Below are positions 17,159 to 44,632 of a stretch of 64,000 bases of DNA, in pieces. The notes beneath the pieces are model-generated. The model made no database searches. It saw only the letters and a program-made list of their open reading frames with translations, and was not told the origin of the DNA. The position numbers were made by a program, and so were the translations under genes. Each line of letters opens with the position of its first letter. Within the stretch, counting starts at the first letter, position 1. Source of the stretch: Legionella sp. (GTDB taxonomy: Bacteria > Pseudomonadota > Gammaproteobacteria > Legionellales > Legionellaceae); assembly GCA_013911415.1 (NCBI GenBank), contig JACETI010000004.1, positions 124,001 to 188,000 of the forward strand, read 5' to 3'.

Positions 17159-17208
17159 GAGATTGTTGTTTTCCAATTTTAAATGCATTTGGCGCTCCCT
17201 CCTTTATA

Positions 17209-19353: not shown

Positions 19354-19387
19354 CAGAAATGGGCGCAAGGAAAATTTTAGATAATTG

Positions 19388-20956
19388 CTACCTTTTTCTC
19401 AGTAAATAATCATTATTTATATTTAAAGCTCGTACAAACTGCACATCGTGGCTGATTAAGACGATAGAGCCTTGGTATTGTTTTAGTGCAGTAAGCAATA
19501 AAGCTTTTGATGTTAAATCTAAGTGATTATCTGGTTCATCAAGCAGTAGTAATGGGGGGGAACTGAGGCCGCTAAATAATACGGCTAGTGACAGCTTTAA
19601 TGTTTCACCGCCACTTAGGGTAGAAACGGGTTGTAGAGCTGACTCTCTTCTTAGGCGTAATTGTGCGAGGATGGTTCGACATTCTGCTTCGCTTAATCCT
19701 GGTGATAGTCTTGAGAAATTATTTAGTACGCTCTCTTCCTGGTTTAAAAAGCTAAAATGTTGATCTAAGAAAGCGGTTTCTTCGGGTTTGCTAACAGAGC
19801 CTTGTAATGGTTGAACTGTTCCTTGAATAATTTTCAACAGCGTTGATTTTCCTGACCCATTCTCACCGGATAACCATAAGTGTTCGCCACGGGCCAGTTG
19901 CAGATTGATTGGCTGATTATGGCCATAAGGCAGGATAATATTCTCTAAAATTAAATGTTGTTTGCTCTGTGTTTTTACTGGGGATACTCTAAAGGCCTGC
20001 GGTTTCACTTCAATAAGTTCTTCTTTAGCTTCGGCATAGGCTTTAGTCGCATCGCTGACACGCTTTTCATTTAAACCAGCAAGCCGGGCGCCAGTTGTTT
20101 CGCTGGTTGCTTTCTTTTTGTCTAGAATAAGCTTTGATTGATTGGTTTGATGGCGATCTTTCTGGGCTTTATTTTGTTTGGCTTGTAAGGCTTCCTGATT
20201 TTTTTGTTTTGCTTTTAAACTCTCGGCTAGCGTCTGTTGTGTTTTTGCTACTTTTCGCTCTAATTCAAGTTCCTGTTGTTTTTTTGAAACCAGATATTCT
20301 TTCCAGCCTCCCTGATAGCGATGTATCCCTTTGGGATTTAATTCTAATATTACTTGGCTTTGTTCTAAAAGGCTTAAATCATGACTGATAATGAGGCAAT
20401 TGGGATGTGCTTTTATCCAGCGCATCAACCAAAGTCTGCTGGTTTTATCGAGATGATTAGATGGTTCATCAAGTATATAGAAGTCGCAACGCTGTCTTTC
20501 TAAATTGAGTAAGTTAAGACGAGTGCGCATGCCACCACTTAAACTGGTATACGGTTGATTCAAAATAGTTGTGGGTAGTTCGTAAGATTCGAATTGTTTT
20601 TCTAAAATGGTTTTAATATCCCAATTATTTTCCAATAATTCAAAATCTTTTTCTAAGATACCTCCTTCTTCAGAGCGTTGTAATGCTTTTACGAGCTCAT
20701 CAATTCCCAGTTTTTCAGCAACAGTTCCTGCAAAGGAATTCAATTCTTGACTTAGGTAACCCACAATTCCAAAATGACTGACTTGATGAGATTGCTGGGC
20801 TAAGCTTTTCGCTAAGCTTGATTTGCCACAACCGTTATCACCAACCATGAAGTGAGTTGTATCTAATAAACACAGATCTAAATTCGTGTATAGGGGCTTG
20901 GGCTTTTGGGGTGGGTGGAAGCTAAGTCCTTTAGCTTCTATCAATATTTTAGGCAT
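19388..20956 (-). CDS. ABC-F family ATPase
   Basis: A 522-residue protein with two ABC ATPase domains on one chain and no membrane segment, the mark of ABC-F proteins, which act on the ribosome. Domain 1: Walker A GDNGCGKSS at 39-47, LSGGM signature, LDEPSNHLD. A Lys/Gln-rich linker follows at about 225-300. Domain 2: GENGSGKST, LSGGE, LLDEPDNHLD and a C-terminal HD switch in LISHD. Its start codon directly abuts the stop of the MFS gene, so the two are co-transcribed as the distal part of the minus-strand arm of the polyketide cluster. ABC-F proteins in antibiotic clusters often protect the producer's ribosome; that is the inferred role. A housekeeping Uup/YheS-like role is the alternative. 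Confidence 0.85.
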   Translation of the reverse strand: MPKILIEAKGLSFHPPQKPKPLYTNLDLCLLDTTHFMVGDNGCGKSSLAKSLAQQSHQVSHFGIVGYLSQELNSFAGTVAEKLGIDELVKALQRSEEGGILEKDFELLENNWDIKTILEKQFESYELPTTILNQPYTSLSGGMRTRLNLLNLERQRCDFYILDEPSNHLDKTSRLWLMRWIKAHPNCLIISHDLSLLEQSQVILELNPKGIHRYQGGWKEYLVSKKQQELELERKVAKTQQTLAESLKAKQKNQEALQAKQNKAQKDRHQTNQSKLILDKKKATSETTGARLAGLNEKRVSDATKAYAEAKEELIEVKPQAFRVSPVKTQSKQHLILENIILPYGHNQPINLQLARGEHLWLSGENGSGKSTLLKIIQGTVQPLQGSVSKPEETAFLDQHFSFLNQEESVLNNFSRLSPGLSEAECRTILAQLRLRRESALQPVSTLSGGETLKLSLAVLFSGLSSPPLLLLDEPDNHLDLTSKALLLTALKQYQGSIVLISHDVQFVRALNINNDYLLRKR

Positions 20957-22174
20957 TTATGCTGCCTTTAGCGACTGAGTTCGTGATGTATTAAAAAACA
21001 TCAACAGGGCGGTGAGGCTCATTAACAACAAGACGCTAAAGAAAGCAAAATTACTCAGAGCATTGAGATAGCCACCTAAGAGGGCCGTCAATGTTGCTGA
21101 AATGGCGCAAATTGAGGCGATGGAGCCAAGAATAAGGCCTTTTTCTCCATCACTTGAAATAGACAAAATAAAGCCCAACATTGCTGAATAACCAACAGCA
21201 TAGAGTAGGGCCATACTTACTGCTACTAGGCTAAAAAAATTAAAATCTAGCGTGGGGGTTAGGAAGCTAAAATTAAACACTGCAAAAAGGGTGAAACACA
21301 AAGTAATGAGTTTTACTGGAGCAATTTTTAATTTAGGCACTATAAAGCAAAAACCAAAGCACATGGCGGCTCCTATGGCAGCCATTAACATTGTACTGTT
21401 ACCAGATTGTAACTTAGGCAGATATTGATAAAACAAAGTCCAAGCGCATTGAAATAGGAAAAAACTAAGTAGGGCGCCTCTTAAAGCCTGGAGTTTAAAT
21501 AATGCAAGGACAGAGGTGAATGCGCTAAAAATTTTTAATTTCTGTAGGTTGGATTGCGGGCTTTTAGTTTCTTCAATGAGTCTTAATAAACCAATACAGC
21601 CTAAACACGACAGGGCAATCACCAGAAAGGGGAGAGCGTGATTTGGGTTATTGCCCAGATAGGCACTTTCTGCAATCACTGGTCCGAACATATAGCCAGA
21701 TGTGACTGCGAACATGACTTGTCCAATGCCGGTCATTTGGTTTGATTTACTGTCAATATCAGTGAGTATCGCTTGTGCTACAGGAATACTGCCGGCACTT
21801 AGTCCATCAATAATCCGCCCTAAAATAAAGAGCGCAGGGGCTTTACTGATAACTGCAATGGTACAGATTAAGTAGCCTACTAATGCTCCTAACAAGGAGA
21901 GATAAAGTACTCGTTTACGGCCGTATTTATCTGAGAGTTGCCCTAAAATGCTGGCACCAAAAATCATCACCATAGAAAAAGCTGCTAGGTTAGCACTGTA
22001 GTAAAACTGATTCAGCCAATTGGGTGCGTTATCACTGAGCAAGGAAGATATTCCAGGAGCAAAGAGATCGCCGCTTAAGGGTATAATCAAGGACATGCCT
22101 ACGCCATCAATAAACATGATAAGCAATAAAGTGAGGGTTTGGCTTGTGTAGTGCCAAGATTTTTTTTGGTTCAT
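20957..22174 (-). CDS. MFS exporter of the polyketide cluster
   Basis: A 405-residue drug:proton antiporter-like MFS protein (DHA1 type). It has about 12 membrane segments, and the loop 2-3 motif A reads GQLSDKYGRKRVL near residue 78. The N-terminus has a GVGMSLIIPL segment similar to those of tetracycline-type exporters. It is 12 bp downstream of the isochorismatase-like gene and abuts the ABC-F gene, in the minus-strand operon running from the PKS at 30401. Export of the cluster product is the likely job, inferred from position. Confidence 0.8.
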   Translation of the reverse strand: MNQKKSWHYTSQTLTLLLIMFIDGVGMSLIIPLSGDLFAPGISSLLSDNAPNWLNQFYYSANLAAFSMVMIFGASILGQLSDKYGRKRVLYLSLLGALVGYLICTIAVISKAPALFILGRIIDGLSAGSIPVAQAILTDIDSKSNQMTGIGQVMFAVTSGYMFGPVIAESAYLGNNPNHALPFLVIALSCLGCIGLLRLIEETKSPQSNLQKLKIFSAFTSVLALFKLQALRGALLSFFLFQCAWTLFYQYLPKLQSGNSTMLMAAIGAAMCFGFCFIVPKLKIAPVKLITLCFTLFAVFNFSFLTPTLDFNFFSLVAVSMALLYAVGYSAMLGFILSISSDGEKGLILGSIASICAISATLTALLGGYLNALSNFAFFSVLLLMSLTALLMFFNTSRTQSLKAA

Positions 22175-22186
22175 TGTGTCGTATTC

Positions 22187-22741
22187 CTATCGAATGTAAC
22201 GGCCGTCTAAAAACTTCATTGCGAGTTCAAGGTAGTCTGGTCGTTCTGAGTGTTTGAGTAGTTCAAAAAAGAGCATTTCTTTGGTAATTAATTCACATTT
22301 TGTCTTTTTTAATCGCTCTAATGCACATTGGCTGTCTTGTCGGTTACGAGCGGAAACGCTGTCGGTTAGAACGAATACTTCATATCCAAGCGCTAGTAAA
22401 TCAACTACGGATTGATAAATGCAGACATGTACCTCAGAGCCGGCTATGACTACTTGCTTTCTATTGAGTTGTTTTAAGTAGTTGATGATCGAGGGTTCAT
22501 CGGCAATGGAGAAATGATGTTTAGTTAATACCTTAGCCTTAGGTGAAACTTGTAGGATTGGTGGGGCTAATGTGCCTAGTTTTTTATGTTCGATTAATGC
22601 TGTAGGTAGGTCATGCGTTGCAAATAGGTCTGCGAGCCAAACACAGTTATGGGTTAAGTTGGCGCTGTTTTCAAGGAGTGGGATGAGCTCTAATTGCATA
22701 TTAAATAGGATTAAACTTGCCTCGTCGAATGTTACTTTCAT
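22187..22741 (-). CDS. Isochorismatase-like hydrolase with Asn for the catalytic Asp
   Basis: A 184-residue protein of the isochorismatase/YcaC cysteine hydrolase fold. Of the catalytic triad, Lys74 (TKHHF) and Cys107 (GSEVHVC) are in place, but the Asp expected in the first strand (LxxxDMQ) is Asn14 (LFNMQ). The C-terminal 30 residues are a helical extension. It lies 12 bp upstream of the MFS gene in the cluster operon. It may be a tailoring enzyme or a binding protein without hydrolase activity. The substrate is unknown. Confidence 0.75.
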   Translation of the reverse strand: MKVTFDEASLILFNMQLELIPLLENSANLTHNCVWLADLFATHDLPTALIEHKKLGTLAPPILQVSPKAKVLTKHHFSIADEPSIINYLKQLNRKQVVIAGSEVHVCIYQSVVDLLALGYEVFVLTDSVSARNRQDSQCALERLKKTKCELITKEMLFFELLKHSERPDYLELAMKFLDGRYIR

Positions 22742-22809
22742 AATGGTTCCTTGTTAATCGTTCTTAAGCTAAGAAAAAGTCAAATCCAGGCTACATTTTA
22801 AACAGTCCG

Positions 22810-24222
22810 CTAAAACAACAGTTCGCCGATAAAATGATGGGCGAATTTTTGATGTATCTTTAATTTCTTTGCCAAAGAAAATGCCTTTTGGTTTACTGTT
22901 GTTTTTAAGCGTTCTGTTACTGAGTAAATCCCCATGAATTGCTTAATGGTATTAAATTGTGACTTTGCTAGCCAATTATCTTCAAAGGGATATTCTGCCC
23001 CTAAATGATGAGCAATCACTAAGCCTGAAACCATCGCTCCTTCATGTCCGGTTAATGAATAATCAGTGCCGCAGTACCAAAGGTTGTTTTGACCTTGAAT
23101 GGTTCGTACTTGCATCTTATTCCATAAATCTTTTGGTCTAAGTTTTGGCAACCGCCAGTTTTTAGTTGCGATTATTTTATCACGGTCTAATTGCTCAGCT
23201 CTATCAAAGCTGACAAACAAAGGAGTGCTTAAGTCCTGATAAGGTTTTAGATGATTAATCACTCGAGTAAGATAGCCTGGGAAATTATGAGTGGGATTTT
23301 GAGCGAGCTCAAATTGAAAGTATTCGTGGGCGTTACTCGGTAGGTTAAGCGCTTCTTTATCAGAATGTATGCTTGATTGTACATCAACGTATTCAAAGGC
23401 ACTGAGGATTTTTTGCTGAGATTCACTGGGCTTATCGAGTAATCTTAGAGCAATCTCTGCTTGGCAGGCAAAGATCACTTGGTCAACCTCTATAGTTTCT
23501 TCGTTTCTAAGAATCACTAAGACTTTATCCTGTTGCGATGAAACCTTTGTCACGGCGCAATTGAGTTTAATGTACTGACTTAATTGTTGTTGGAGCTTGA
23601 GTAAATATTGATGAATTCCACCAGCCAACTTGCGCCAATGACATGAAGAAAAAAATGACAGCAAGTTCATATTAAATGAGATCGCAATGTAGAGTAGTGA
23701 ATACTCAAGTGATGGGGCACGACATCCTGAGAAGGTAGTTAGGATCGGCAATAAGACCTGTTTCGCAAATTCATCGGAGTATTTACCTTGGGTGACAAAA
23801 TCACCAATTGATAGTTTTTTTAATTGTTCTTTATCTTGGAATATTAAGTTTTGCAATTCGATGTGAAAGCGATCCATTTCTGCGAAAAAGCGATTGTTTA
23901 GGGTGCCGCCTATGCGTAAGTTGCTCCAATAATTTCGTTTCCTATCTTCTGCTTTAAAGGCGCAAAAGGAGAGAGGGGCGATGTAAGTCGGTAATTCCAA
24001 TTGATTGATCAGCGCAAAAAAGTTAGGCGATAGGCGTTCGTGGATGTATTCAACGCCCATATCAACAGAGATTTTTTGGTTTTGGTCTACTAACTCATGT
24101 GTGTAGGCATGGCCGCCAATTTCTGTTGATGCTTCAAATAAAGTTACATCATGAGTTTTATAAAGTGCCCATAAGGCGCTCATGCCTGCAACTCCACCGC
24201 CTATAATAATTGTTTTTTTCAT
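22810..24222 (-). CDS. FAD-dependent amine-oxidase-like oxidoreductase (COG2907 type)
   Basis: A 470-residue flavoprotein. The dinucleotide-binding motif IIIGGGVAGMSAL is at 5-17, an acidic residue ends beta-2 (LFEAS), and IGGHAYTH follows near 36-43, as in the NAD/FAD-binding proteins of COG2907. A C-terminal FAD motif is present near 390 (LWYCGTDYSLTGHEGAMVSG). It overlaps the acyltransferase gene by four bases (ATGA), so the two are translationally coupled. In this operon it is a candidate oxidative tailoring enzyme for the polyketide. A general lipid-metabolism enzyme is the alternative, since relatives often lie beside cyclopropane fatty acid synthase genes. Confidence 0.8.
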   Translation of the reverse strand: MKKTIIIGGGVAGMSALWALYKTHDVTLFEASTEIGGHAYTHELVDQNQKISVDMGVEYIHERLSPNFFALINQLELPTYIAPLSFCAFKAEDRKRNYWSNLRIGGTLNNRFFAEMDRFHIELQNLIFQDKEQLKKLSIGDFVTQGKYSDEFAKQVLLPILTTFSGCRAPSLEYSLLYIAISFNMNLLSFFSSCHWRKLAGGIHQYLLKLQQQLSQYIKLNCAVTKVSSQQDKVLVILRNEETIEVDQVIFACQAEIALRLLDKPSESQQKILSAFEYVDVQSSIHSDKEALNLPSNAHEYFQFELAQNPTHNFPGYLTRVINHLKPYQDLSTPLFVSFDRAEQLDRDKIIATKNWRLPKLRPKDLWNKMQVRTIQGQNNLWYCGTDYSLTGHEGAMVSGLVIAHHLGAEYPFEDNWLAKSQFNTIKQFMGIYSVTERLKTTVNQKAFSLAKKLKIHQKFAHHFIGELLF

Positions 24223-25067
24223 CCGAGTTCCTTTTTATAGGCCATAATCTGCTGATTAAGTTGGCTTAACACATGACCTGGTCCAATTTCTTGAAAGTGA
24301 GCCTGCGGGTATTTGTTTATTAGGCTAACAATGGTTTGTCTCCAACGCACGGGTTGAACCAATTGATAGGTCAATTCTTCCAGCAGATGAGAGCTGCTAA
24401 TAAAGCCGCCGTGGGTGCTGGAAATAACAGGTATTTTAGGTTCAGCAAAGTCGTATTGGCTTAAAAATTTGAAAAATGAATGAGCGACATCCTTCATATA
24501 ACGAGAATGGAAGGCTCCGCTGACAGCCAGTGGGACTATCCGAAAATGAGCCTTGTGTAATAATGGGGCTAATGCTGCTAGGCGGTCTTTTTTTCCGCTT
24601 AAGACTCTTTGAGTGTAGGTGTTGTCATTAGCAATATCTACATCATTAAAGCCCTCTGTAATTAACAAGTCAGCAAGGCGGTCGCAGTGCTCGCCAATCA
24701 CCGCTAACATAGAACCATTTTGTGCCTGAGCCATTAATCTCGCCCGTTCTTTAACAATTGCTAAGCCTTGGACAAAGGTGAACACTCCAGTCGCGAATAA
24801 GGCGGTATATAAGCCAAGACTGTGCCCAATGACTGCATCGGGGTTTTGCTTTGCTTCTAAAAATGCTAGTGCCGATACCAGGTAAATTAATGGTTGCGTG
24901 TATTGTGTCGCATTGAGCCTTTGTTCTTTATCATTAAGGCATAGTGAAACGACATCGTAGCCTAGGAGATCTGAAGCAAAGGCTGTTTCTAGAGGATAGG
25001 CCTGGAATAGCTCCTTGCCCATCCCTTGCACTTGCGATCCTTGTCCTGGAAACATCGTAATAATCAT
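24219..25067 (-). CDS. Stand-alone malonyl-CoA acyltransferase (trans-AT)
   Basis: A 282-residue FabD-like protein. It begins ITMFPGQGSQ, with the catalytic Ser83 in GHSLG, the conserved Arg near 108-110 and His187 in GAFHSRYM, which is typical of malonyl-specific enzymes. It loads extender units onto acyl carrier proteins. None of the four assembly-line proteins here contains an AT domain, so this enzyme must serve them in trans. It lies 9 bp after the PKS at 25077-30401 and overlaps the oxidoreductase by 4 bases. Confidence 0.9.
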   Translation of the reverse strand: MIITMFPGQGSQVQGMGKELFQAYPLETAFASDLLGYDVVSLCLNDKEQRLNATQYTQPLIYLVSALAFLEAKQNPDAVIGHSLGLYTALFATGVFTFVQGLAIVKERARLMAQAQNGSMLAVIGEHCDRLADLLITEGFNDVDIANDNTYTQRVLSGKKDRLAALAPLLHKAHFRIVPLAVSGAFHSRYMKDVAHSFFKFLSQYDFAEPKIPVISSTHGGFISSSHLLEELTYQLVQPVRWRQTIVSLINKYPQAHFQEIGPGHVLSQLNQQIMAYKKELG

Positions 25068-25076
25068 AAAAATACC

Positions 25077-28000
25077 CTAATTTAACTCAAACACTTTAAC
25101 TGCTGGAGTTGCCTTAACTTGTTCTTGTGGTGCTTCAAACAGCTTATCCATTGTGGATGTTATAGAGGTAACTCCTTTGAGGCTCAGCAATAAATTGCCT
25201 TTGCTGTCACACAGTTCAATATCGTAGCTGCTAGTAGACGCACTTGATTGTTCTTTGGGGATGCACAAACAGTAAATGGGTTGGCACAGTGCCGGTAGTT
25301 TCACTAGGTTAATTTGTTCAATCAAGAAAGGAACTTTTACTTGACCTGTAGTATTGCTATTAAATTCAGTCAAAATCGCAGTTTGTAAGGCGCCGTCAAT
25401 CAATGCCGGAGATAGGGCATAGCCCCAATTTTGTTCTACCAATAATATTGAGCGCACTTGTTTACCTTGAAGTGCTGCTTGATGAATGACGCTAAAATCA
25501 GGCCCGTAGTTGTAGCCCTTAGTTTTAAAATAATGATAAATTTCTCGCTTCGAAAAGGTGATGCTTGCGGCCATGTGTGCTTGATGCATACTTGATTGTA
25601 TTCCAACACGATGCGTCCCTAATTCTCCTTGGCTATAAATGAGGGGTTGATCTTTATCTACGAGTTGATAACGGTTGCCTTGCTGAGAAATACGCGACGC
25701 TTCAGGGTTTCGTATGATTTTTCTCCATAAGAGATTATGCATGGTCTGGAAAGGTTGATGCTCATAAAACATAGAAATACTCAGTGCCGCGGGAGCAATC
25801 GCTTGGCCCAAAATCACGTGTTGGTTAACCAATTCACTAGGATGCGATAATCGAGTTTCTTTTGCATCCACCCAATGCTTAAAGTTATCAAAGGGATAGG
25901 CTGGTAAAATGCTCGCATACTTTTGGGCGAATAAAGGATTAAAATCAACATCCATGCCTTGGTTAAATGCATCGATGAGTGCATGAGTCGATTGACTCAA
26001 TGATGATTGAATCTGAGGTAAGGGCAGTTCACAGAGTTTGATTAACTCATCTCTATGTTTAACAACAAAGCCTAATCGTATTTTCTGCGGACTTCTAATA
26101 CAGCAATAGCCATAGCTTAATGCCATCAGGTCTTCTTGATCATGAACTAAAGCATTTCTTAAGTGGATTAATTCTTTTTGCAGCGCCCCTTCAGAATGAG
26201 CAGATAAAGCAAAAAGGTATTGAGGGGATTGTTCTGATTGCATTGTAAGCGGTTTATGTGATTCGATAATCACATGAGCATTGGCCCCACCTGCGCCAAA
26301 AGAACTGATGGCTGCGCGAACAGGGGATTCACTGTAAGTATTTGATGACTTATTAATAAAAAACGGCGTGTTGTGGAGGTTTAAATGGGGGTTTTCCATG
26401 GTACTATGTAGGCTTGGCGCTAATTGCTTATGCTGCATTTGTAATAATACTTTCACTACAGATGCAAGGCCTGCGGCCGATTCCAAATGGCCAATATTGC
26501 CTTTAATCGAACCTATTGGGATGCTCTGTTGGGGTAGACCATGATAGGCTTCCGTTAATGCGCGTAGTTCAATCGGATCACCTAACTCAGTGCCTGTGCC
26601 GTGGGCTTCGATAACATTGATGTCTTTGGGTTCGAGTTGGGCGCGCTTTAGCGCTTTTTTTATCAGCTCGCTTTGGGCTTTGGGATTGGGCGCAGAATAG
26701 CCATTCGCCTTTCCTCCGGCATTCAGCGCACTGCCTCTGATCACACCATAAATTCTTAAACTCTTCTCCAAGGCTTTTTGGTAGGGCATAAGTACGATGC
26801 TAATGACTCCTTCACCATCAATAAAACCATCGGCTTTGTGGCCAAAGGGTTTGCATTGGCTGGTTTTGGAGAGCATATGCAGTTGGCATAAAACCTCAAT
26901 TTGTCGAGGATGGCTAATCAGGTTCACACCACCAACAATCGCCATTTCGCAATCGCCATGAAGTAGGGCAGTCACGGCAGTATGCAGTGCAGTGAGTGAA
27001 GAAGAGCAGGCACTATCAACGGCAAAGCTTGGGCCATGCCAATTAAATTGATAGGAGGTACGATTTGCAATCGACCAAAAGAGTGAACTTGGGTAGTTTT
27101 GGCTTTCTTGATTTAAGTTTAATAATGAATAACCATGATTCATTACTCCGACGTAACAACCCACTTCTTGGCCATTCAGTTGTTTTAGTGATAGGCCTGC
27201 ATCTTCAATCGCGTGATAGGTAGTTTGCAAAAAAAGACGTTCTTGCGGATCCATACGCTCGGCATCAATAGGCGCTATATTAAAAAACTCATGATCAAAG
27301 CTCTGAGGATCATTAATTAAGGCGGCAGTTTGGGTGTATGTGTTAGGTTGATTATTAATCCAACGCTCCGAGGGAATGGGCTCGAATGCATCTTCTCCGC
27401 TTAAGAGTAAATCCCACAATTGATCGCAATTATCCGCTCCTGGAAACTTACCGGCCATACCGACAATAGCAATACTATTGTTTAGTTCAGGCACCGTTGC
27501 TTGTGGTGCTATGACCTCTGCTACAGACACTTCATTAAAGGAGTTATATTCGGCAATATATTGAGCTAATAAGTGAATAGTCGGGTATTCAAATAAAATA
27601 GTCGCAGGCAAATAACCAAGCTTTTGCTGTAAGGCAGTGACTATTTCTAATGAAATTAACGAGTCAATGCCCAGTTCACTAAAAGGAATGTTTGCTTCCA
27701 ATTCATGTTCTGGAGTGTGCAATACTTGCGAAATAATGCTGCGGATTAAGTCTGCAATGTTAGGATTTTGCACTTTATTTTTAGGCGGTTCAATTGCTTG
27801 CTCGGCAAATTGGTTAGCAAAATTATCTGTGAAATAAGTACTCAGTTTATTGAGGGTAGGATACTCAAATAATAAAGTTGCTGGTACATAGCCTACTTTA
27901 TCGGTTATTGGCCTGATTAACTCTAAAGAGATAAGCGAGTCTATGCCGTACTCGCTAAAAGGGATATCTCCTTGCAGTTCTTTTTCAGGGGTATGCATGA

Positions 28001-30401: not shown

Positions 30402-30440
30402 TATTACGTCCTAATGAGTTTTAAAATTAAACGAAAAGAG

Positions 30441-30448
30441 ATTATAAT
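30441..30448. promoter_or_regulatory. Back-to-back -10 boxes in the divergent PKS promoter region
   Basis: ATTATAAT reads as TATAAT on both strands, in the short gap between the two divergent PKS operons. No convincing -35 box is seen on either side. Shared control of the two arms is likely. Confidence 0.35.
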
Positions 30449-30487
30449 TCTCCTGACATTAAAAATAAAAGACAATGATTGCCAATT

Positions 30488-36730: not shown

Positions 36731-39074
36731 TCAGGAGAGAATTGCGCTTGTTGGCATGGCATGCAGGCTTCCTGATGCGCAGACGGTCAATGAATTTTGG
36801 CAGAACTTGTTGCAAGGTAGAGTGTCTACCAAAAAGAAGAGACTTTGGCCGGATGGTACTTCGAGCTATTCAGGATTTTTAGATAATCCCAATAGTTTTG
36901 ATGCGGCTTTTTTTAATTGCTCTCCTAATGAAGCTCAATGCATGAGCCCGCAATTACGTCAATTATTAGAAGTATCGTACCAGGCAATTGAAAGCAGTGG
37001 ATTAACGATAAAAAAATTAGCTAAGTTAAATGTTGGGGTATTTTGTACCAGTTTACCAGGAGATTATAAAAATCTACTGGCCCAAGATACGCAAAATGCA
37101 ATTAATCCTTATAGTTTTTCCGGCAATGCGCCTTCGGCGATGTCGGGCAGATTATCTTATTATTATGATTTTCATGGTCCTTCAATTTCTGTTGATACAG
37201 CCTGTTCTTCCGGGCTTACTGCTTTACATTTGGCGCAATTATCGATTAAAAACGGCGATTGTGATGCTGCCTTAGTGGGTGGGGCAAGTATCTTTTCAAC
37301 CAGTGAATTTCATCGCTTGGCTAGAGCCAGCCAAATGCTTTCTAAAGATAATGAATGCGCGGCTTTTGATGAAAAAGCAGATGGTTTCGTGGCAAGTGAA
37401 GCGGTTGTTTGTTTGGTTTTGATTCGTGAAAGTAAAGCTCAAGAGTTGGGACTGCCGATTTATGGTTTAATTAAAGAGCTTAAATTAAATCACAATGGCT
37501 TGAGTAACGGCCTGATGGCACCTAATGCAAAACAGCAAGAATCATTAATTAGACAAACCTATCAACAAGCTGGACTATCGCTAAAAGATGTAGCACTTTT
37601 TGAAGCGCATGGAACAGCAACAAAACTGGGTGATAGCATTGAGCTTAGAGGACTAGCCGATGCTTTGGGTGAGCAAGGTGGTTCAGTCAGCTATCTAGGC
37701 GCCTCAAAAATGATGATTGGCCATTGCTTGGTTTGCTCTGCCTTAGCATCCGTTATTAAAGTAGCTTTGTCTTATCATTATCAAATGATTCCTCCCAATC
37801 CTTTATTTAAAACAAGAAATCCCTTGTTGACTATCCCTGATGGGTTAGTGATCAACACCACTGCTGTTCCTTGGCCTAAAGGAAAGCAGTATGCCAGCAT
37901 CAGTGCCTACGGATTCACCGGATCTAATGGTCATTTGATCATGGAGTTTGTTGCAGATCAGACGGCCAAAGCAGAGCTAGTGCCGCCATACTCTTTTGAG
38001 CGTGTTGAATATCACGTTAAGAAAAATCAAGAGCGAGTAGCAAAGACAGAGACTCAGACTTTCGAAATGGAAGCATGCATTGAAGTGTTATGTGAGGTCT
38101 TATCTTATCAAGCAAATAAATTGGATCCCAGTAAATCTCTAGCCGAGTTAGGCATTGATTCGCTCAGCGCTTTAAATGTCCTAACTAAACTTAAAGAGCG
38201 TGGTTACGCCATCTCGGCGGACAAAGTATGGAGTGCCCCCAGTCTTAGGGATTTTTCTCATGAATTAATTCCTCCGATGTATAAGGAGCTAGAGAGCGGC
38301 ATTCCTGGGATGAAGAAGAAAAAAATCAATGGCTTAGAGTGGTTGTATTCTAATGGTGATGGGCCTTTGTTAATTCTTTTACCGCCATTAAATAGTGACT
38401 ATAAAGCGTGGATGCGGCAAATTCCTATGCTGTTAAAACGCAATTACCAACTCTATATTCCTCATTATCCTGGCCATGGGGCACAAGTCGTTGAAGGGTC
38501 ATTGGTGCTGGCCGAACTAGCAAATAAAATTGTGGATTTTGCTTATTCCTTGCCGCAAAAAGCGCATTTTATCGGCTGGTCATTGGGGGGGGTTTTAAGC
38601 ATCTTAATCGCGACAGTGCACAAGGATTTAATAAAAAGCATGACCTTAATTGCCTGCACCACGCAATTTGATGAGAGTTTGTTTGAAAAAACGGTGGAGA
38701 TGCAAGAGGATCTGAAAACTAAGGATGACTTATTAAAAATTGCTTTTCAGACCGAGCAATCAATCAGCGAATATATATCCTGCAAAACGGCCATGACGGT
38801 GTTGAAAGACTATTATCAAGAGCTGATGAATTTATCCATTGATACAAAAGCACTTATCGCAATTAATACACCTACGCAGATCATTCTAGGAAAACAAGAT
38901 CCAGTGATTAATGTGCAACAAATTGAGCGATTGAAAACAATTCCTCATCAAGTGCTCACGGTGTTTGAGCACGCAGGACATTTTATTCCGATTACCTCTG
39001 CCGCGGAGTTTAATTCATTGCTGCTTTCTTTTGTGACCTCAGTTGAGAACACTAAGACTCCTGAGCATGTATGA
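36720..39074 (+). CDS. Terminal PKS module: KS-ACP-thioesterase
   Basis: 784 residues. The KS occupies about 1-420, with Cys162 in DTACSSG, His in HGTATKLGD and His in MIGHCLVCSA. The last motif departs from the usual NIGHLExAAG, so elongation activity is uncertain. ACP: LGIDSLSAL with Ser481. The C-terminal alpha/beta-hydrolase thioesterase has Ser621 in GWSLGG, Asp727 in GKQDPV and His754 in HAGHF, a complete triad, so it should release the product. It is the only release domain in the cluster, although it is encoded in the middle of the operon. It overlaps both neighbours by 8-11 bases, indicating tight co-translation. Confidence 0.9.
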   Translation: MNASQERIALVGMACRLPDAQTVNEFWQNLLQGRVSTKKKRLWPDGTSSYSGFLDNPNSFDAAFFNCSPNEAQCMSPQLRQLLEVSYQAIESSGLTIKKLAKLNVGVFCTSLPGDYKNLLAQDTQNAINPYSFSGNAPSAMSGRLSYYYDFHGPSISVDTACSSGLTALHLAQLSIKNGDCDAALVGGASIFSTSEFHRLARASQMLSKDNECAAFDEKADGFVASEAVVCLVLIRESKAQELGLPIYGLIKELKLNHNGLSNGLMAPNAKQQESLIRQTYQQAGLSLKDVALFEAHGTATKLGDSIELRGLADALGEQGGSVSYLGASKMMIGHCLVCSALASVIKVALSYHYQMIPPNPLFKTRNPLLTIPDGLVINTTAVPWPKGKQYASISAYGFTGSNGHLIMEFVADQTAKAELVPPYSFERVEYHVKKNQERVAKTETQTFEMEACIEVLCEVLSYQANKLDPSKSLAELGIDSLSALNVLTKLKERGYAISADKVWSAPSLRDFSHELIPPMYKELESGIPGMKKKKINGLEWLYSNGDGPLLILLPPLNSDYKAWMRQIPMLLKRNYQLYIPHYPGHGAQVVEGSLVLAELANKIVDFAYSLPQKAHFIGWSLGGVLSILIATVHKDLIKSMTLIACTTQFDESLFEKTVEMQEDLKTKDDLLKIAFQTEQSISEYISCKTAMTVLKDYYQELMNLSIDTKALIAINTPTQIILGKQDPVINVQQIERLKTIPHQVLTVFEHAGHFIPITSAAEFNSLLLSFVTSVENTKTPEHV

Positions 39075-42000
39075 GTTAGTGGAAGCCAATTTTGCAGAGC
39101 AACTGATTTGGCGGCGTTTGCTAGAAAATCCTTATGATAAATCCTGCACACTTAGTTATCGCTTTTTGATCAAACAGATATTAACGTCAGAACAAATTAA
39201 CGCAGGGATTTATCGCTTTCTCAATGCGCATAAAGAGCTCAATTATCGCTTTTATGAACATGATGGAAGGGTTTATAAACGGTTTCAACCACCATCCATC
39301 GACCCAGCCCGAGAATTATCGGAGCGTTGCGAAAAGGTTTTATTTAACAAACCCTTAACGCCGCTTTATGAGTTTCAATGGCAAAAGACCGATGATGGCA
39401 TTTATTTATATGTCTATTTGAGTCACTTAATCATTGATGGCAGTGGATTTTGGCTCTTAGTTAATGAGATGGAAGCAGCATTTTTAGATAAGCAGAACCC
39501 AATACACAAGGAGCAGCCGCAAAAGCACTCGGAAGATGATTCATATTGGCAGCATTATTTGCACAATCAATCCTTACACCAAGTAATTCCCTTTTTGGAT
39601 CATGTTAAAACACCACAATGGGTTAGTCATGAATCCTTACTTTCTTCAGAGCGAGCAAGAGCGTTAATCAATTATAAAAACAGCCATTCTGTATCGTTAT
39701 TTCATTTATTAAGTGCGGCTTTAGCGAGTACCTTACATCAATACTTAAAAGATGAATCATCGGCTACAATCATTCGCTTAGCCTATTACGTTAAATTAAA
39801 TCGGCAACTCAACCAGTTTGGGTGCGATATCAACCTTTTACCCTTATTCGTGCCCTGCGAGGATACTCAGACTCTGGAACAAGTACTTCAGTCAGTTGTT
39901 GCAACGCGCAAAAAGCAGGTTAGCGTACAAAATAGGCCTATTCTTGAGTTGTTGAAGTATGTAGATTCTATCAAAAATAACAATCGTCCTTTATTGAATG
40001 TAGTGGTGAATGAGTCGCCTGGGTTAATTGCTCAGACGACTACTCCGTTCTTTAATGAAGTTAGGGGTTTGGATAATCAAAGTGCGTCTAATACTCTGTC
40101 GCTCGTTTACACCTTTGACGGAGAACAATTACGCATCCGTTTTGAATCAAATCAAGGGCCATTGCTGCAGGAATTATTAGGTCAATTAGCGGTAAATTGT
40201 ATAAAAATATTGGAGCTAATGATCACTAAACCGCAGACACTCTTAGCGGATGTGGTATTGCGAGAACAAGCACAACCAATAAGTAAAGGTGCGCAGTATG
40301 ATTCTCAATGGCCCTTATTTCTTGTCCAACAAAATCAAGAACGTACGGCTGTTATTGATGAGACTAACACCTTGTCTTACCTTGAGCTTCACAAGCGCAT
40401 CAATGCGGTCTATAAGACTTTAGCCGCTTTAGATAAAGACTTATTAACCCAGGGCGTCGCTTTATTTTTAACTCGTAGCTGTCAACTTCCAATAGCGATG
40501 CTAAGCGCATTAGCCGCTAAAGTAACTTTTATTCCTATAGCAGAAAATACATCTGCAGCAGCTCGGGGTTTACTCATCAAGGAAACGCAATTAAAGACTA
40601 TCTTTGTTGACAATCAAACTGAACAATTACTCACTGCAGAAGAAAGAGCAATTCAGCAGGTGATTAATTTAGATTTGATAAAGGGTGTGGATGGCCAGTT
40701 GTCTCTCGAGCCCTTATTAGACAATGAAATTGCCTACATTTTGTTTACCTCCGGTTCAACAGGTAAGCCTAAAGGGGTGATGATTAGTTATGACAACCTA
40801 AGCCATTTTTTCTCGTCGATGGCCGCTCATCCAGGATTGACTCAGCATGATACCTTGCTTGCGCTGACAGCAATTAGCTTCGATATTTCTATCAATGAAC
40901 TTCTATTGCCGCTGTTTTGTGGTGGTTGTGTATTAATCGCCTCTAATGCAGTGCGCTTATCTCATCAAGCTCTAGGTGAGATGGTTAATCAATATGACGT
41001 ATCCGTCGTTCAAGCAACCCCATCAACACTGAACTTGCTGATGCAAAGCAAATGGGCCTGGCATAATAAAAGAACCCTGCGTTTATGGGTTGGTGGTGAG
41101 GTTTTAAGCGCGGATCTAGTTCGCTTTTTTAAGCACCAAAACATTGAGATCTACAATATGTACGGCCCAACCGAAGCAACGATTTGGGTGAGTGCTTCAT
41201 TGGTTCATTCGGCAGACTTAATCTCTATTGGAACGCCTTTAGCGAATACCTCTTTATATGTGCTTGATAGCAATGGGGCATCCATGCCGCTTGGAATGGT
41301 TGGTGAGTTGGTAATTGAAGGCAAATTAGTTGGTCAAGGTTATATTAATTATCCAGCTACTTCCTTTAAACACGGAGATATTGGAGTAAGGCGCTATCAT
41401 ACCGGCGATAAAGTGATCGCCTTAGCAAAAGACATCATAATCTATCTCAAACGTTACGATGAACAGGTCAAAGTACGAGGTCATCGGGTTGAATTGGAGG
41501 AGATCAACACTCAGATACGAAAGTTAATTCCTAGTTTTATTGGTTTAACGCTATTAGTTCCAGAACCAGAAGCGCATCTTTGTGTTTACTACACCTCGCC
41601 GACACATCTTAATGTGAGGCAGTTAAAGGAAGCCCTTAAGAAAATACTACCTGAGTACAAAGTGCCGCAACGGTATTATTTATTAGAAACAATGCCCTTA
41701 ACTAATAATGGTAAGCTAGATAAGAACAAACTTATTGGCTATAAGCCGCAACCACAGCCTGCGACGCCTATTGATGACAAAGAGCCGACATCCTTTGAAC
41801 AAAAAATTCTAAGGCTTATTACGCAGCATTTTAATGTGATTATCAGTGATCCAGAGCGCTCTTTGTTGGATTATGGCTTTAATTCATTGAGTTTTAATCA
41901 GTTGTCCTTTTTATGTGGCCAATACTTGGAATTTAGTGTAAGTCCTCATCAGTTTTATCAGCTCAATACCATCAAAACACTGAGTGAATATTATCAATTT

Positions 42001-44490
42001 AATAAAATTGCAGTTGCCAAAGATTATTCACCAATAGCTTTTAAAAACAGGCGAACACCCATTGCGGTCATTGGCTATGATGCCTTGTTGCCAGGGGGTA
42101 AAAATCCTGCTGAATTTTGGCAGTCATTAGTGAAACAAGAATGTTTAATTAGCGATCACCAACGTCCTTGGTTAAGTAGCAGGGACCGGGCGGGTTATAT
42201 CAATAAGGTAGAGTATTTCGATAGAAAGTTTTTCAATCTTTCTCCTATTGAGGTCATGCACCTTGATTTTAGGCAACGCTTATTGCTGCAATGTGCTTTT
42301 CGTACTTTAGAGCACGCTAGTATTCTATCCGCCGCCCTGGATCATAAGGCCGTGGCGTGTTTTATTGCGGCAACGGGTATGGATTCAATGCTGGCCTCAA
42401 GTAAACAACAGATTCCTGCGCATCCCTATACGCTTTCAGGGAACTCGCTCAGTATGTTAGCAAATAGATTATCCTTTTATTTTAATTGGAAAGGGCCTTC
42501 AGCAACTGTTGATACGGCGTGTAGTGGTTCTTTAACGGCGCTGGCAAGAGCAATCGATAGTTTAATTTTAGGCAAGGCTGATTTATGTTTTGTTGGTTCT
42601 GCTAATTTAATCTTGGATAATGACTTCACCGATGCCTTACAAGCTGGACGATTTTTATCACCTCAATACAGATGTGCGAGCTTTTTAGACCAAGCCGATG
42701 GTTATGTGCGTGGTGAAGGGGTGATGGGTTTTCTGTTGAAGCCTTTGGAACAAGCAGAAAAAGACGGGGATGTTATTCATGCCGTTATTCATCATGTGGT
42801 GGAAAATCATGGCGGCAGATCTGCATCGCTTACCTCGCCCAATCAGCAGGCTCAGGCCGATTTATTAGTGAGAGCTTATCCTAAAGAATTGGCCCAAGAT
42901 CTCAGTTATATAGAAACTCACGGTACGGGAACAAAGCTTGGTGATCCTATAGAAATCGATGCACTTAAAGAGTTTGAGCAGCTCAGCTTGGGCGATAATC
43001 AACATGAAACAATTTATTTAGGCGCTTTAAAACAAAATATAGGTCATTTGGAGGCTTCAGCTGGATTTGCCTCCTTATTAAAAATAATTTTGGCGATGAA
43101 GCATCAATGCCTGCCTGCAAATGTACAGAGTCAATCAATTAATCCATTAATCAATTTAGCGAGTTCTAAGTTTAAGTTAAGTGCTGAGACTATACCCTGG
43201 GGAGCTAAAAAGCTCATGGCCGGAGTTAGTTCATTTGGTTTTGGTGGTTCAAATGCCCATGTCGTGTTATCAAATTATGATGCGGTCGAGCTGCACCGCG
43301 ATTTAGACCCTGATGTGCCTCTACCTATCGTTTTATCTGCTAAAACAAAATCCGCGTTAAGGGCGCGCATAAACAATCTGCTGAATGACCTGGCGAGTGA
43401 TCTATCATTGATAGATATAGCTTATAGTTTGGCAGTGGGGCGAACTCATTTTGAGTGTCGTACGGTGGTATTAGCACAAAGTAAGCAGCAATTGGTTGAA
43501 GAGTTGAAGGAGTTATTAGCCACTGAACAATTACAAAAACCAATAGAGGGGTATTCAGCTGTTCTTGACGACTATTTAGCGGGTAACCCAGTGAATTGGG
43601 AGTCCCTTTTCTCTTCATTTAAAGCAAAGCGGGTCGCGCTTAGCCCCTATATTTTTGATACAGAGCCCTATGTGCATAAAACTTTTGCTTCAAGCACTAA
43701 TTTAATAGATAGCATTAAATTCACTTCGATTAATGCGAATCACTATTCAATAATAATCGCGAGTGATCATCCTTTTCTTGAGCAGCATCGAGTATTTAAT
43801 CATAAGGTACTTCCCGGAGTTGCCTATGTTGATTTTATTTTGTCATGTTTATCCAAACAAAAGTCCAAAAAAGCGTTGTGTTTAGAAAATCTACGTTGGC
43901 TCCGACCAGCTGTATGCACAGGAGAGTCCTTGTCTTTAAATCTTGATCTCGGCATGAATGCGTTTAAATTTTCAAACCTGGATAATCAGCTTTTAGCCAC
44001 AGGAGAATACAGTTGGTTAGAGAAAGAATCTGTTTTTACCCAGAATTGGTTTAAAGAAGCGCAAAGTAAGCTAAAAAAATTAGCTCTTAATAAGTCTTTA
44101 GCGGCATATGTTTATAACCGATTTAAACAACTGGGCATAGATTACGGCACCTATTTTCAAGGGATATCCTCAATAAGTTGTTACGAGAATTTAGCATTGA
44201 CTCAAATCTTAATAGAGCCCCAAGGAAGTTGTATTGGTCTATTGGACGCAGCGTTTCAATCAGGAATGGCGATTAACTTGGCAGAAATTCAGGCAGGATT
44301 AATGCCCTTTAGTTTAGGGCGAATGATTATTCTTGATCCCAATAAATTAAGATTAATACAAAAAAGCCACGTGTATACCCTAAAAAACTCGCCATTTAGA
44401 ACCAATTTTGTAATTTGCGATGAGCATGATAATCCTTTGTGCATACTAATAGACCTAGGTGTCAAAGCATCAAATCTGTCTTTATCATAA
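39067..44490 (+). CDS. Hybrid NRPS-PKS: C-A-PCP-KS-DH
   Basis: About 1807 residues. Condensation domain with the catalytic His120 in SHLIIDG. Adenylation domain about 440-900 with TSGSTGKPKG near 560, YGPTEAT, the YHTGD loop and the NGKLDK lysine. PCP with GFNSL (Ser940; Asp of GxDS is Asn). Ketosynthase about 997-1410 with Cys1152 (DTACSGS), HGTGT and NIGH. Dehydratase with HPFLEQH from 1568, LPGVAY and Asp1727 (LLDAAFQ). It then ends without carrier or release domain. The C domain at the very N-terminus suggests a starter acylation of the amino acid, so this is probably the first protein of the line. The ATG at 39067 overlaps the preceding stop by 8 bases and is preferred over the TTG at 39043. 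Confidence 0.92.
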   Translation: MYELVEANFAEQLIWRRLLENPYDKSCTLSYRFLIKQILTSEQINAGIYRFLNAHKELNYRFYEHDGRVYKRFQPPSIDPARELSERCEKVLFNKPLTPLYEFQWQKTDDGIYLYVYLSHLIIDGSGFWLLVNEMEAAFLDKQNPIHKEQPQKHSEDDSYWQHYLHNQSLHQVIPFLDHVKTPQWVSHESLLSSERARALINYKNSHSVSLFHLLSAALASTLHQYLKDESSATIIRLAYYVKLNRQLNQFGCDINLLPLFVPCEDTQTLEQVLQSVVATRKKQVSVQNRPILELLKYVDSIKNNNRPLLNVVVNESPGLIAQTTTPFFNEVRGLDNQSASNTLSLVYTFDGEQLRIRFESNQGPLLQELLGQLAVNCIKILELMITKPQTLLADVVLREQAQPISKGAQYDSQWPLFLVQQNQERTAVIDETNTLSYLELHKRINAVYKTLAALDKDLLTQGVALFLTRSCQLPIAMLSALAAKVTFIPIAENTSAAARGLLIKETQLKTIFVDNQTEQLLTAEERAIQQVINLDLIKGVDGQLSLEPLLDNEIAYILFTSGSTGKPKGVMISYDNLSHFFSSMAAHPGLTQHDTLLALTAISFDISINELLLPLFCGGCVLIASNAVRLSHQALGEMVNQYDVSVVQATPSTLNLLMQSKWAWHNKRTLRLWVGGEVLSADLVRFFKHQNIEIYNMYGPTEATIWVSASLVHSADLISIGTPLANTSLYVLDSNGASMPLGMVGELVIEGKLVGQGYINYPATSFKHGDIGVRRYHTGDKVIALAKDIIIYLKRYDEQVKVRGHRVELEEINTQIRKLIPSFIGLTLLVPEPEAHLCVYYTSPTHLNVRQLKEALKKILPEYKVPQRYYLLETMPLTNNGKLDKNKLIGYKPQPQPATPIDDKEPTSFEQKILRLITQHFNVIISDPERSLLDYGFNSLSFNQLSFLCGQYLEFSVSPHQFYQLNTIKTLSEYYQFNKIAVAKDYSPIAFKNRRTPIAVIGYDALLPGGKNPAEFWQSLVKQECLISDHQRPWLSSRDRAGYINKVEYFDRKFFNLSPIEVMHLDFRQRLLLQCAFRTLEHASILSAALDHKAVACFIAATGMDSMLASSKQQIPAHPYTLSGNSLSMLANRLSFYFNWKGPSATVDTACSGSLTALARAIDSLILGKADLCFVGSANLILDNDFTDALQAGRFLSPQYRCASFLDQADGYVRGEGVMGFLLKPLEQAEKDGDVIHAVIHHVVENHGGRSASLTSPNQQAQADLLVRAYPKELAQDLSYIETHGTGTKLGDPIEIDALKEFEQLSLGDNQHETIYLGALKQNIGHLEASAGFASLLKIILAMKHQCLPANVQSQSINPLINLASSKFKLSAETIPWGAKKLMAGVSSFGFGGSNAHVVLSNYDAVELHRDLDPDVPLPIVLSAKTKSALRARINNLLNDLASDLSLIDIAYSLAVGRTHFECRTVVLAQSKQQLVEELKELLATEQLQKPIEGYSAVLDDYLAGNPVNWESLFSSFKAKRVALSPYIFDTEPYVHKTFASSTNLIDSIKFTSINANHYSIIIASDHPFLEQHRVFNHKVLPGVAYVDFILSCLSKQKSKKALCLENLRWLRPAVCTGESLSLNLDLGMNAFKFSNLDNQLLATGEYSWLEKESVFTQNWFKEAQSKLKKLALNKSLAAYVYNRFKQLGIDYGTYFQGISSISCYENLALTQILIEPQGSCIGLLDAAFQSGMAINLAEIQAGLMPFSLGRMIILDPNKLRLIQKSHVYTLKNSPFRTNFVICDEHDNPLCILIDLGVKASNLSLS

Positions 44491-44557: not shown

Positions 44558-44632
44558 AAGTGCCCCCAGATTTGGGGAAGACTCTGAAAAACTTACATGG
44601 ACAGAAAATGACGCTAAATCATTGATTTACAT
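44558..44632 (+). pseudogene. Decayed tail of a winged-helix gene at the right end of island B
   Basis: AAGTGCCCCC, then a GGG(A/G)AAGAC-like segment and GCTAAATCATTGATT, follow the same order as the last 50 bases of the gene at 48461-48835 and its spacer to tRNA-Arg, with an insertion in between. Only the end of the gene is recognisable. The gap 44491-44904 otherwise holds the repeat at 44633 and the higB promoter region. Confidence 0.4.

What the first reader, a model, noticed from the sequence alone, without database searches (positions are those of the whole stretch)
19388..44490. Trans-AT hybrid NRPS-PKS cluster with no obvious known counterpart
Four assembly-line proteins, one stand-alone malonyltransferase, an oxidoreductase, a modified isochorismatase-like protein, an MFS exporter and an ABC-F protein are arranged as two divergent operons. 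I do not recognise the domain series as that of a described compound. Polyketides from Legionellales are little known.
Basis: partly seen in the sequence, partly recalled or inferred. Interest (0 to 1): 0.85.

Follow-up and report, generated by a model that had tools for sequence, protein, structure and literature searches.

The report
Lankacidin-type antibiotic cluster in Legionellaceae
This stretch of a Legionella relative's genome is a gene set for a lankacidin/chejuenolide-type ring-shaped polyketide, a known natural-product family, and it appears to move between related bacteria, here as an island next to a tRNA gene.

Summary
In detail: nine open genes at 19388-44490 form a trans-AT NRPS-PKS cluster in two divergent operons. 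"No known counterpart" is wrong. All nine proteins have a counterpart in the lankacidin (lkc) region of Streptomyces, at 28-48% identity. The decisive gene is the oxidoreductase, an orthologue of the amide oxidase/Mannich macrocyclase LkcE (PDB 6f32, E 1.3e-113), which keeps E64, Y182 and R326. All five ketosynthases fall into position-specific clades with lkc, Hahella (chejuenolide genus) and Pseudomonas clusters (support 100/99-100). Most likely product: a 17-membered carbocyclic lankacidin/chejuenolide-type polyene.

What is new is a divergent branch in Legionellaceae (4 of 143 genomes of the order): the dehydratase LkcB is fused to LkcA in all four; three of the four genomes lack an FkbH-type (lactoyl-loading) gene; gene order differs, with exporter and ABC-F genes in the operon. 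Copies of the tRNA-Arg 3' end bracket the cluster, and cluster and RpoB similarities conflict between genera, which implies horizontal transfer. Product, starter and activity are unproven. The searches named found no print record of such genes in Legionellaceae. Verdict: new variant of a known kind.

The parts
39043..44490 (+). P4, LkcA-LkcB fusion: C-A(Gly-like)-PCP-KS-DH, 1815 aa
   Evidence: Pfam; 34% to LkcA over 1637 aligned positions and 32% to the discrete DH LkcB; A-domain code DINQWGMIWK vs DILQLGMIWK in lkc and Hahella; DH in one frame with the LkcA part in 4 of 4 Legionellaceae
25077..30401 (-). P1, LkcC orthologue: KR-MT-ACP-ACP-KS-DH, 1774 aa
   Evidence: 39% over 1818 aligned positions; the two lkc clusters rank first of 1266 plasmid records
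30479..36730 (+). P2, LkcF orthologue: KR-ACP-KS-KR-ACP-KS, 2083 aa (TTG start; ATG at 30488 possible)
   Evidence: (36-37% in two pieces); start region
36720..39074 (+). P3, LkcG orthologue: KS-ACP-TE, 784 aa
   Evidence: (44% KS, 29% ACP-TE)
24219..25067 (-). LkcD orthologue: stand-alone malonyl acyltransferase
   Evidence: 45%; GHSLG
22810..24222 (-). LkcE orthologue: FAD amide oxidase / Mannich macrocyclase
   Evidence: PDB 6f32 E 1.3e-113; 42.6%; E64, Y182, R326, T397, Q428 conserved, H65, Y168, N179 changed
22187..22741 (-). LkcH orthologue: isochorismatase-fold protein with altered catalytic residues
   Evidence: 48% over 184 of 184 aa; alignment of 8
20957..22174 (-). MFS exporter
   Evidence: 28% to the lkc-cluster MFS
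19388..20956 (-). ABC-F ATPase, possible ribosome self-protection
   Evidence: NCBIfam ribo_prot_ABC_F 290.4 bits (cut-off 380), EttA model 152.5; 29% to an lkc-cluster ABC-F; PDB matches mix resistance and housekeeping ABC-Fs
30402..30478 (.). divergent intergenic (promoter) region
   Evidence: promoter-like matches 2 against 0.9 expected: weak
44627..44680 (.). direct repeat of the tRNA-Arg 3' end, about 135 nt past the P4 stop (att-like, right end)
   Evidence: 93% to 48836-48889; longer match 44612-44680, 91%, E 1.3e-18
17204..17254 (.). degenerate copy of the same repeat (att-like, left end)
   Evidence: 85%, E 4.5e-6
48841..48917 (-). tRNA-Arg(tcg), the presumed integration site, beside tRNA-Lys

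Best explanation
This is a biosynthetic gene cluster of the lankacidin/chejuenolide family, in a divergent Legionellaceae branch. Proposed working: P4 (LkcA) loads glycine on its A-PCP unit, and the C domain joins it to a small acyl starter (probably acetyl, because the lactoyl-loading gene is missing). The malonate chain is then built by P4's KS, P1 (C-methylating, reused several times), P2 and P3, all served with malonate by the separate AT. The fused DH acts where the discrete LkcB acts in lankacidin. The TE of P3 releases a beta-oxo-delta-lactone. The LkcE-like flavoenzyme oxidises the glycine-derived amide to an iminium and closes the ring by an intramolecular Mannich reaction at the lactone carbon, giving a 17-membered all-carbon macrocycle. 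The MFS protein exports it and the ABC-F protein protects the producer's ribosomes. The cluster travels between Legionellaceae, in this genome as an island at tRNA-Arg. Shown here: gene identity, domain order, motifs, orthology, tRNA-end repeats, conflict of cluster and RpoB similarity. Inferred from the lankacidin literature: chemistry, starter, iteration, product, target.
For: LkcE: PDB 6f32 E 1.3e-113 against 1.1e-7 for the best non-LkcE oxidase; E64, Y182, R326, T397, Q428 in 9 of 9 cluster LkcEs and in none of 6 outgroup oxidases (residues from PMC6162330). All nine window proteins have a counterpart in the S. griseofuscus lankacidin region, and lankacidins A and C were tentatively identified by HR-MS in that strain (PMC8443760, passages). 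KS tree of 57 domains: five position-specific clades, each holding Legionellaceae with lkc, Hahella and Pseudomonas, 100/99-100. Lkc clusters rank first among plasmid records for P1, P4 and LkcH. A code 8 of 10 identical to lankacidin's. Motifs present. The same nine genes in 4 of 143 genomes of the order. Transfer: RpoB and cluster identities conflict. Island repeats. No FkbH match in G000, G051, G080. One PPTase match in the host genome.
Against: Identity to characterised members is moderate (28-48%), and LkcE (43%) lies below the 54-100% range reported for LkcE homologues in lkc/che clusters (PMC6162330). Of the six candidate catalytic residues named there, H65 and Y168 differ here (Tyr, Phe), as does N179 (Ser); Y168 bonds the lactoyl group in LkcE. 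Hahella keeps Y168 although chejuenolide is an acetamide, so Y168 does not track the starter. The MFS and ABC-F matches (28-29%) do not by themselves show common descent with the lkc genes. The ABC-F score is below the NCBIfam cut-off, and its PDB matches mix resistance and housekeeping types (ExpZ 160.9, YheS 148.0, a macrolide efflux protein 147.5 bits). Chejuenolides are reported without antibiotic activity (PMC9030710), so family membership does not guarantee an antibiotic. The KS tree carries long-branch warnings and no AU test was run. No expression or product data.
Confidence: 0.9

Rival explanations
1. A sub-case of the best explanation as to the family, a rival as to the function: it makes a chejuenolide-like product (acetamide, lactone lost by decarboxylation) that is not a ribosome antibiotic; the ABC-F gene is incidental.
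For: No FkbH-type gene in G000, G051, G080 or in the two Hahella genomes searched. Without the lactamide hydrogen bond the macrocyclic lactone decarboxylates easily (PMC9881209, passages). Chejuenolides reported without antibiotic activity (PMC9030710, passages).
Against: An ABC-F gene sits in the operon in 4 of 4 Legionellaceae clusters and beside the Pseudomonas and both Streptomyces clusters, and none was seen in the 40 kb read around each of two Hahella clusters. That pattern fits a ribosome-active product.
Confidence: 0.35
2. The assembly line is lkc-derived but has drifted to a different ring or a linear product.
For: Long stem branches of several Legionellaceae clades in the KS tree; shorter P2 and P3 than LkcF and LkcG; altered LkcE pocket residues.
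Against: Domain order, five KS positions, most of the A-domain code and the E64/Y182/R326 residues of LkcE are kept.
Confidence: 0.12
3. The cluster is a decaying remnant and makes nothing.
For: No regulator was recognised in the cluster and no integrase in the neighbouring ORFs tested; a split duplicate of a neighbouring gene lies beside it.
Against: All nine ORFs are open with catalytic motifs present, and nine open counterparts are read in G051 and in G080.
Confidence: 0.05
4. An unrelated new trans-AT pathway that only shares single genes with lankacidin.
For: Moderate identity and rearranged gene order.
Against: Five position-specific KS orthologues plus LkcD, LkcE and LkcH orthologues.
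Confidence: 0.02

Closest known systems
Lankacidin cluster (lkc), Streptomyces griseofuscus pSGRIFU1 (L009); plasmid reported highly similar to pSLA2-L of S. rochei (PMC8443760, passages)
   Same: LkcA, C, D, E, F, G, H orthologues, LkcB homologue, same domain order, five KS positions, MFS and ABC-F genes nearby
   Different: 28-48% identity; LkcB separate there and fused here; lkc has a HAD-IIIC (FkbH-type) gene plus ACP, an SDR/MaoC-like gene, PQQ genes and two ABC-Fs; different gene order; linear plasmid rather than tRNA-Arg island
   Same: A-B-C-D-E-H-F-G plus MFS, no FkbH-type gene in these two genomes
   Different: LkcB separate; one gene direction; LkcE 62-63% to Streptomyces but 44% to the window; no ABC-F seen in the 40 kb read. 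That these make chejuenolide is inferred from genus and homology; PMC9030710 describes the che cluster as six genes, fewer than the eight lkc-type genes I read
Pseudomonas sp. BGI-2 cluster (L122-L124)
   Same: A-B-C-D-E-H-F-G orthologues and an ABC-F
   Different: LkcB separate; LkcE 46% to the window and 53% to Streptomyces; no lkc-type MFS matched in the 60 kb read; product not known to me
Legioliulin trans-AT PKS of Legionella (PMC5126622, passages)
   Same: trans-AT PKS in the same family of bacteria
   Different: makes a fluorescent compound of another kind; not compared by sequence here

Membership tests
Lankacidin/chejuenolide family | LkcE-type amide oxidase/macrocyclase with E64, Y182, R326 | tested here: met
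Lankacidin/chejuenolide family | Hybrid LkcA: C-A(Gly)-PCP-KS | tested here: met
   the glycine reading of the code is recalled
Lankacidin/chejuenolide family | LkcC KR-MT-ACP-ACP-KS-DH, LkcF KR-ACP-KS-KR-ACP-KS, LkcG KS-ACP-TE | tested here: met
Lankacidin/chejuenolide family | Each KS orthologous to the KS at the same position | tested here: met
   five of five clades
Lankacidin/chejuenolide family | Stand-alone AT LkcD and isochorismatase-like LkcH | tested here: met
   (45% and 48%)
Lankacidin/chejuenolide family | 17-membered carbocyclic polyene product | not testable with these tools
   needs chemistry
Lankacidin proper (lkc) | Lactoyl/pyruvoyl loading gene (FkbH-type HAD-IIIC) | tested here: not met
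   no TIGR01686 match in G000, G051, G080; one in G072 on another contig; present in both Streptomyces records
Lankacidin proper (lkc) | Discrete dehydratase LkcB | tested here: not met
   fused to LkcA in 4 of 4 Legionellaceae
Lankacidin proper (lkc) | PQQ genes beside the cluster | tested here: not met
   none among the neighbouring window ORFs profiled (not every window ORF was profiled and the host genome was not searched for PQQ genes); present in L009 and L011
Chejuenolide (che) | Acetyl starter and decarboxylated macrocycle | not testable with these tools
   absence of FkbH is consistent only
ABC-F ribosome protection | Passes the curated NCBIfam cut-off | tested here: not met
   290.4 bits against cut-off 380, though it is the best of 179 models

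The most novel reading that the evidence does not exclude
Legionellaceae carry a further, previously unrecognised branch of the lankacidin family, here on a tRNA-Arg island. It makes a new lankacidin-like macrocycle (non-lactoyl amide, LkcA-LkcB fusion logic) that still hits the ribosome, as the operon's ABC-F suggests. These bacteria would be passing a self-protected ribosome antibiotic cluster among themselves.
Probability: 0.4. Interest if true: 0.65.

Novelty: new variant of a known kind. Interest (0 to 1): 0.5.

Why it matters
Lankacidin-type macrocycles are a small natural-product family known from Streptomyces, with chejuenolide as its Hahella counterpart. A divergent, mobile branch in Legionellaceae gives a natural experiment on the Mannich macrocyclase LkcE (which pocket residues vary when the starter changes), on modular-iterative trans-AT assembly (a DH fused rather than discrete), and on why bacteria known (recalled) for living in amoebae keep a possible ribosome inhibitor with its own protection gene.

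Tried and rejected
Rejected: "no known counterpart". Rejected: that the LkcE match is only a general amine-oxidase match; an LkcE profile over 143 genomes of the order gives 709-818 bits in four genomes and at most 199 in the rest, and the one other oxidase of this kind whose neighbourhood I read (an Aeromonas plasmid) sits beside DUF1365 and cyclopropane-synthase genes, not a PKS. Rejected: purely vertical inheritance of the cluster within the family. Considered and dropped: the E. coli plasmid LkcE-like gene as a family member; it lies in a phenazine-like cluster with an NRPS gene but no annotated PKS in the stretch read, and lacks Y182 and T397. Considered and dropped: the Legionella adelaidensis LkcH-like hit, a lone gene among housekeeping genes. 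The class-wide search found no further genome (1 of 369, own). No integrase was found in the ORFs tested. Neighbouring ORFs of the window gave no tblastn match in the loci held. A near-identity search of plasmids with 19388-30401 found nothing. Structure prediction was not used; the solved LkcE structure at 43% identity made it unnecessary. MIBiG, antiSMASH and transATor were not available. Caveats on the KS tree: several outgroup KSs have long branches and the tool warned of long-branch joins; two KS fragments were dropped; the A-position KSs of G080 and G072 were not in the stretches then held.

Full report
WHAT IS THERE. The window lies in a 2.5-Mb genome whose RpoB is 83.7% identical to that of Legionella adelaidensis and at most 70.8% to the other listed hosts in the plasmid collection. 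All genomes listed by the order-wide search are labelled the same family, so I call it Legionellaceae; the genus is unnamed. Nine ORFs at 19388-44490 form two divergent gene sets. Pfam and motif reading give P4 C-A-PCP-KS-DH, P1 KR-MT-ACP-ACP-KS-DH, P2 KR-ACP-KS-KR-ACP-KS, P3 KS-ACP-TE, a stand-alone AT, an FAD oxidase, an isochorismatase-like protein, an MFS exporter and an ABC-F ATPase. Catalytic motifs of KS, KR, MT, ACP, DH, TE and AT are present; the C domain has SHxxxDG where HHxxxDG is usual (recalled), as in all six LkcAs aligned.

THE COUNTERPART. The oxidase matches LkcE of lankacidin biosynthesis in the PDB at E 1.3e-113; the best non-LkcE oxidase is at 1.1e-7. The plasmid search led to the lankacidin region of Streptomyces griseofuscus pSGRIFU1 and a second Streptomyces plasmid. 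Lankacidins A and C were tentatively identified by HR-MS in S. griseofuscus, and its plasmid is described as highly similar to pSLA2-L of S. rochei (PMC8443760, passages). Every window protein has a counterpart there: LkcA 34%, LkcB 32% (as the C-terminal part of P4), LkcC 39%, LkcD 45%, LkcE 43%, LkcF 36-37%, LkcG 44% (KS) and 29% (ACP-TE), LkcH 48%, MFS 28%, ABC-F 29%. By Pfam the S. griseofuscus proteins have the same domain order and also five KS domains; a figure legend in PMC6162330 counts four. For P1, P4 and LkcH the two Streptomyces clusters rank first of 1266, 2692 and 179 matching plasmid records.

ORTHOLOGY BY POSITION. A tree of 57 KS domains (two fragments dropped; the A-position KSs of G080 and G072 not held at that time) puts the KSs of Legionellaceae, Streptomyces, Hahella and Pseudomonas into five clades by position, supports 100/99, 100/99, 100/100, 100/99 and 100/100 for A, C, F1, F2 and G. 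The tool warned of long outgroup branches and of possible false joins among them; I ran no AU test. The A-domain code reads DINQWGMIWK here and DILQLGMIWK in Streptomyces and Hahella; that this is a glycine code is recalled.

THE MACROCYCLASE. PMC6162330 (text parts 1 to 3 of 7 and passages) reports E64, Y182 and R326 as strictly conserved in LkcE-type cyclases; E64A, E64Q and R326L were inactive, while R326Q and Y182F kept activity. With LkcE numbering, E64, Y182, R326, T397 and Q428 are present in 9 of 9 cluster LkcEs and in none of the 6 outgroup oxidases. H65, Y168 and N179 differ in Legionellaceae (Tyr, Phe, Ser); Hahella and Pseudomonas also have Tyr at 65 and Pseudomonas also has Phe at 168. 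Y168 bonds the lactoyl group in LkcE, but Hahella keeps it although chejuenolide is an acetamide, so it is not a clean marker. The paper's nine homologues in lkc/che clusters span 54-100% identity; the window's 43% lies outside, hence a divergent branch.

LkcH. In an alignment of eight, the catalytic Asp of the isochorismatase family is Asn in the four Legionellaceae, the Pseudomonas and the Hahella proteins, and the catalytic Cys is Val in both Streptomyces proteins (the triad is recalled). None of the eight keeps the full triad, so ordinary hydrolysis is doubtful. PMC6162330 names LkcH as a candidate for the acetylation step.

DISTRIBUTION. Of 143 genomes held for the order, four score 709-818 bits with the LkcE profile and the rest at most 199. 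The four are the host and G051, G080, G072 of one other genus. All carry the same nine genes in the same divergent layout, 82-91% identical to the window in G051, 63-83% in G080 and 56-77% in G072 (BLAST over the parts aligned). The DH is fused to LkcA in 4 of 4 and is a separate gene in the two Streptomyces, the two Hahella and the one Pseudomonas cluster examined. The P4 gene of G072 appears in two pieces, but a run of 160 N lies between them, so it may be an assembly gap. In the class, 1 of 369 evenly drawn genomes matches at 1e-90, the host itself. In the genus of Hahella sp. CCB-MM4, 4 of 7 genomes match; I read the clusters of two of these. They hold eight lkc-type genes plus an MFS gene, whereas PMC9030710 speaks of six genes in the chejuenolide cluster (passages).

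STARTER. The FkbH-type model finds nothing in G000, G051, G080, the Pseudomonas genome and two Hahella genomes, one gene on another contig of G072, and one gene in each Streptomyces record. Chejuenolide carries an acetamide where lankacidin has a lactoyl-derived amide (PMC9881209, part 1 of 4 and passages). An acetyl starter is therefore my inference for the Legionellaceae clusters. The same paper says the macrocyclic lactone is then prone to decarboxylation, and PMC9030710 (passages) says chejuenolides have no antibiotic activity. Against a non-antibiotic product stands the ABC-F gene in the operon: the 4 Legionellaceae clusters, the Pseudomonas cluster and both Streptomyces clusters have one close by, and none was seen in the 40 kb around each of two Hahella clusters. 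The ABC-F scores best with the ribosomal-protection-like model but below its cut-off, and its PDB matches mix resistance and housekeeping ABC-Fs. That lankacidin binds the ribosome is recalled.

MOBILITY. RpoB identity is 84.3% between host and G051 but 97.4% between G051 and G072. For seven cluster proteins (P4 and LkcH left out) the host and G051 share 82.7-90.9% while G051 and G072 share 63.9-76.4%. The conflict means horizontal transfer between genera. In the window the 3' end of tRNA-Arg(tcg) (48836-48889) recurs as a direct repeat at 44627-44680 (93%), about 135 nt past the P4 stop, and in degenerate form at 17204-17254 (85%, E 4.5e-6), so the cluster is bracketed as an island of about 27.5 kb. 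In G051 the cluster lies about 3.5 kb from the same kind of tRNA group (Lys, Lys, Arg-tcg), and beyond the tRNAs, past one unrelated 726-aa ORF, stands a protein 44% identical to the window's mevalonate-kinase-like protein; so the cluster sits in the same chromosomal neighbourhood in both. No second repeat was found in the 54 kb read there. Four of seven related genomes (G080, G061, G053, G081) have extra partial copies of the tRNA-Arg end within about 8-18 kb of the full copy, which suggests an integration hotspot. In G080 and G072 the tRNA group and the cluster are on different contigs, so their sites are unknown. No integrase was recognised in the ORFs tested.

IN PRINT. lankacidin + gene cluster: 127 papers, 30 listed. 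lankacidin + Legionella: five papers, none on such a cluster by its listing. chejuenolide: 16 papers by listing. trans-AT + Legionella + polyketide: ten papers, of which I read passages of PMC5126622 (legioliulin; another trans-AT PKS in one species; unnamed NRPS/PKS hybrids in three) and PMC11828895; neither names lankacidin in what I saw. LkcE: twelve papers. lankacidin + Gammaproteobacteria + amine oxidase: none. Only open-licence papers are held, and supplementary files were not readable, so a listing elsewhere, for example among the unnamed Legionella hybrids, is possible.

VERDICT. It is a divergent, mobile branch of the lankacidin/chejuenolide family. Membership of the family is nearly certain; product, starter and activity are inference.

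Noticed in passing
L010:15686-17098 (E. coli O170:H18 plasmid NZ_CP076707.1): An LkcE-like flavoenzyme (39% to the window's; E64, R326, Q428 kept, Y182 and T397 not) in a phenazine/NRPS-like cluster with a gene annotated clbA nearby: LkcE-type chemistry may occur outside lankacidin.
   Followed up: partly
window 15452-17162 and 17516-19357: A direct duplication of about 1.7-1.8 kb: ORF 15587-17158 and a second copy read as ORFs 17585-18118 and 18169-19353, one copy on each side of the left att-like repeat; no Pfam or PHROG match.
   Followed up: partly
window 44681-48840: A second short module between tRNA-Arg repeats (36.3% GC) with a HigB-like toxin gene, an HTH gene and a phage-repressor-like S24 gene; looks like a tandem island.
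   Followed up: partly
window 10290-14183 and 61097-62635: Ankyrin-repeat proteins; the first has partial matches to Dot/Icm effector models, well below cut-offs.
   Followed up: no
window 3112-8643: Three neighbouring ORFs with weak protein-kinase matches.
   Followed up: no
window 49072-52401: Mevalonate-kinase-like gene (below cut-off), HMG-CoA reductase and type 2 IPP isomerase beside the tRNA-Arg/Lys pair.
   Followed up: no
G000:C8:352424-353173 (L001): A second large PKS-like ORF (2548 aa) elsewhere in the host genome; its KS does not join the lkc clades, on a long branch.
   Followed up: partly
L116:6340-7173: An aminoglycoside-adenylyltransferase-like gene about 2.9 kb beyond the ABC-F end of the G080 cluster.
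   Followed up: no
LkcH alignment: LkcH proteins lose a different catalytic residue in different hosts (Asp to Asn, or Cys to Val) while a C-terminal DGRYIR motif is the same in all eight, which suggests a changed or non-catalytic role.
   Followed up: partly
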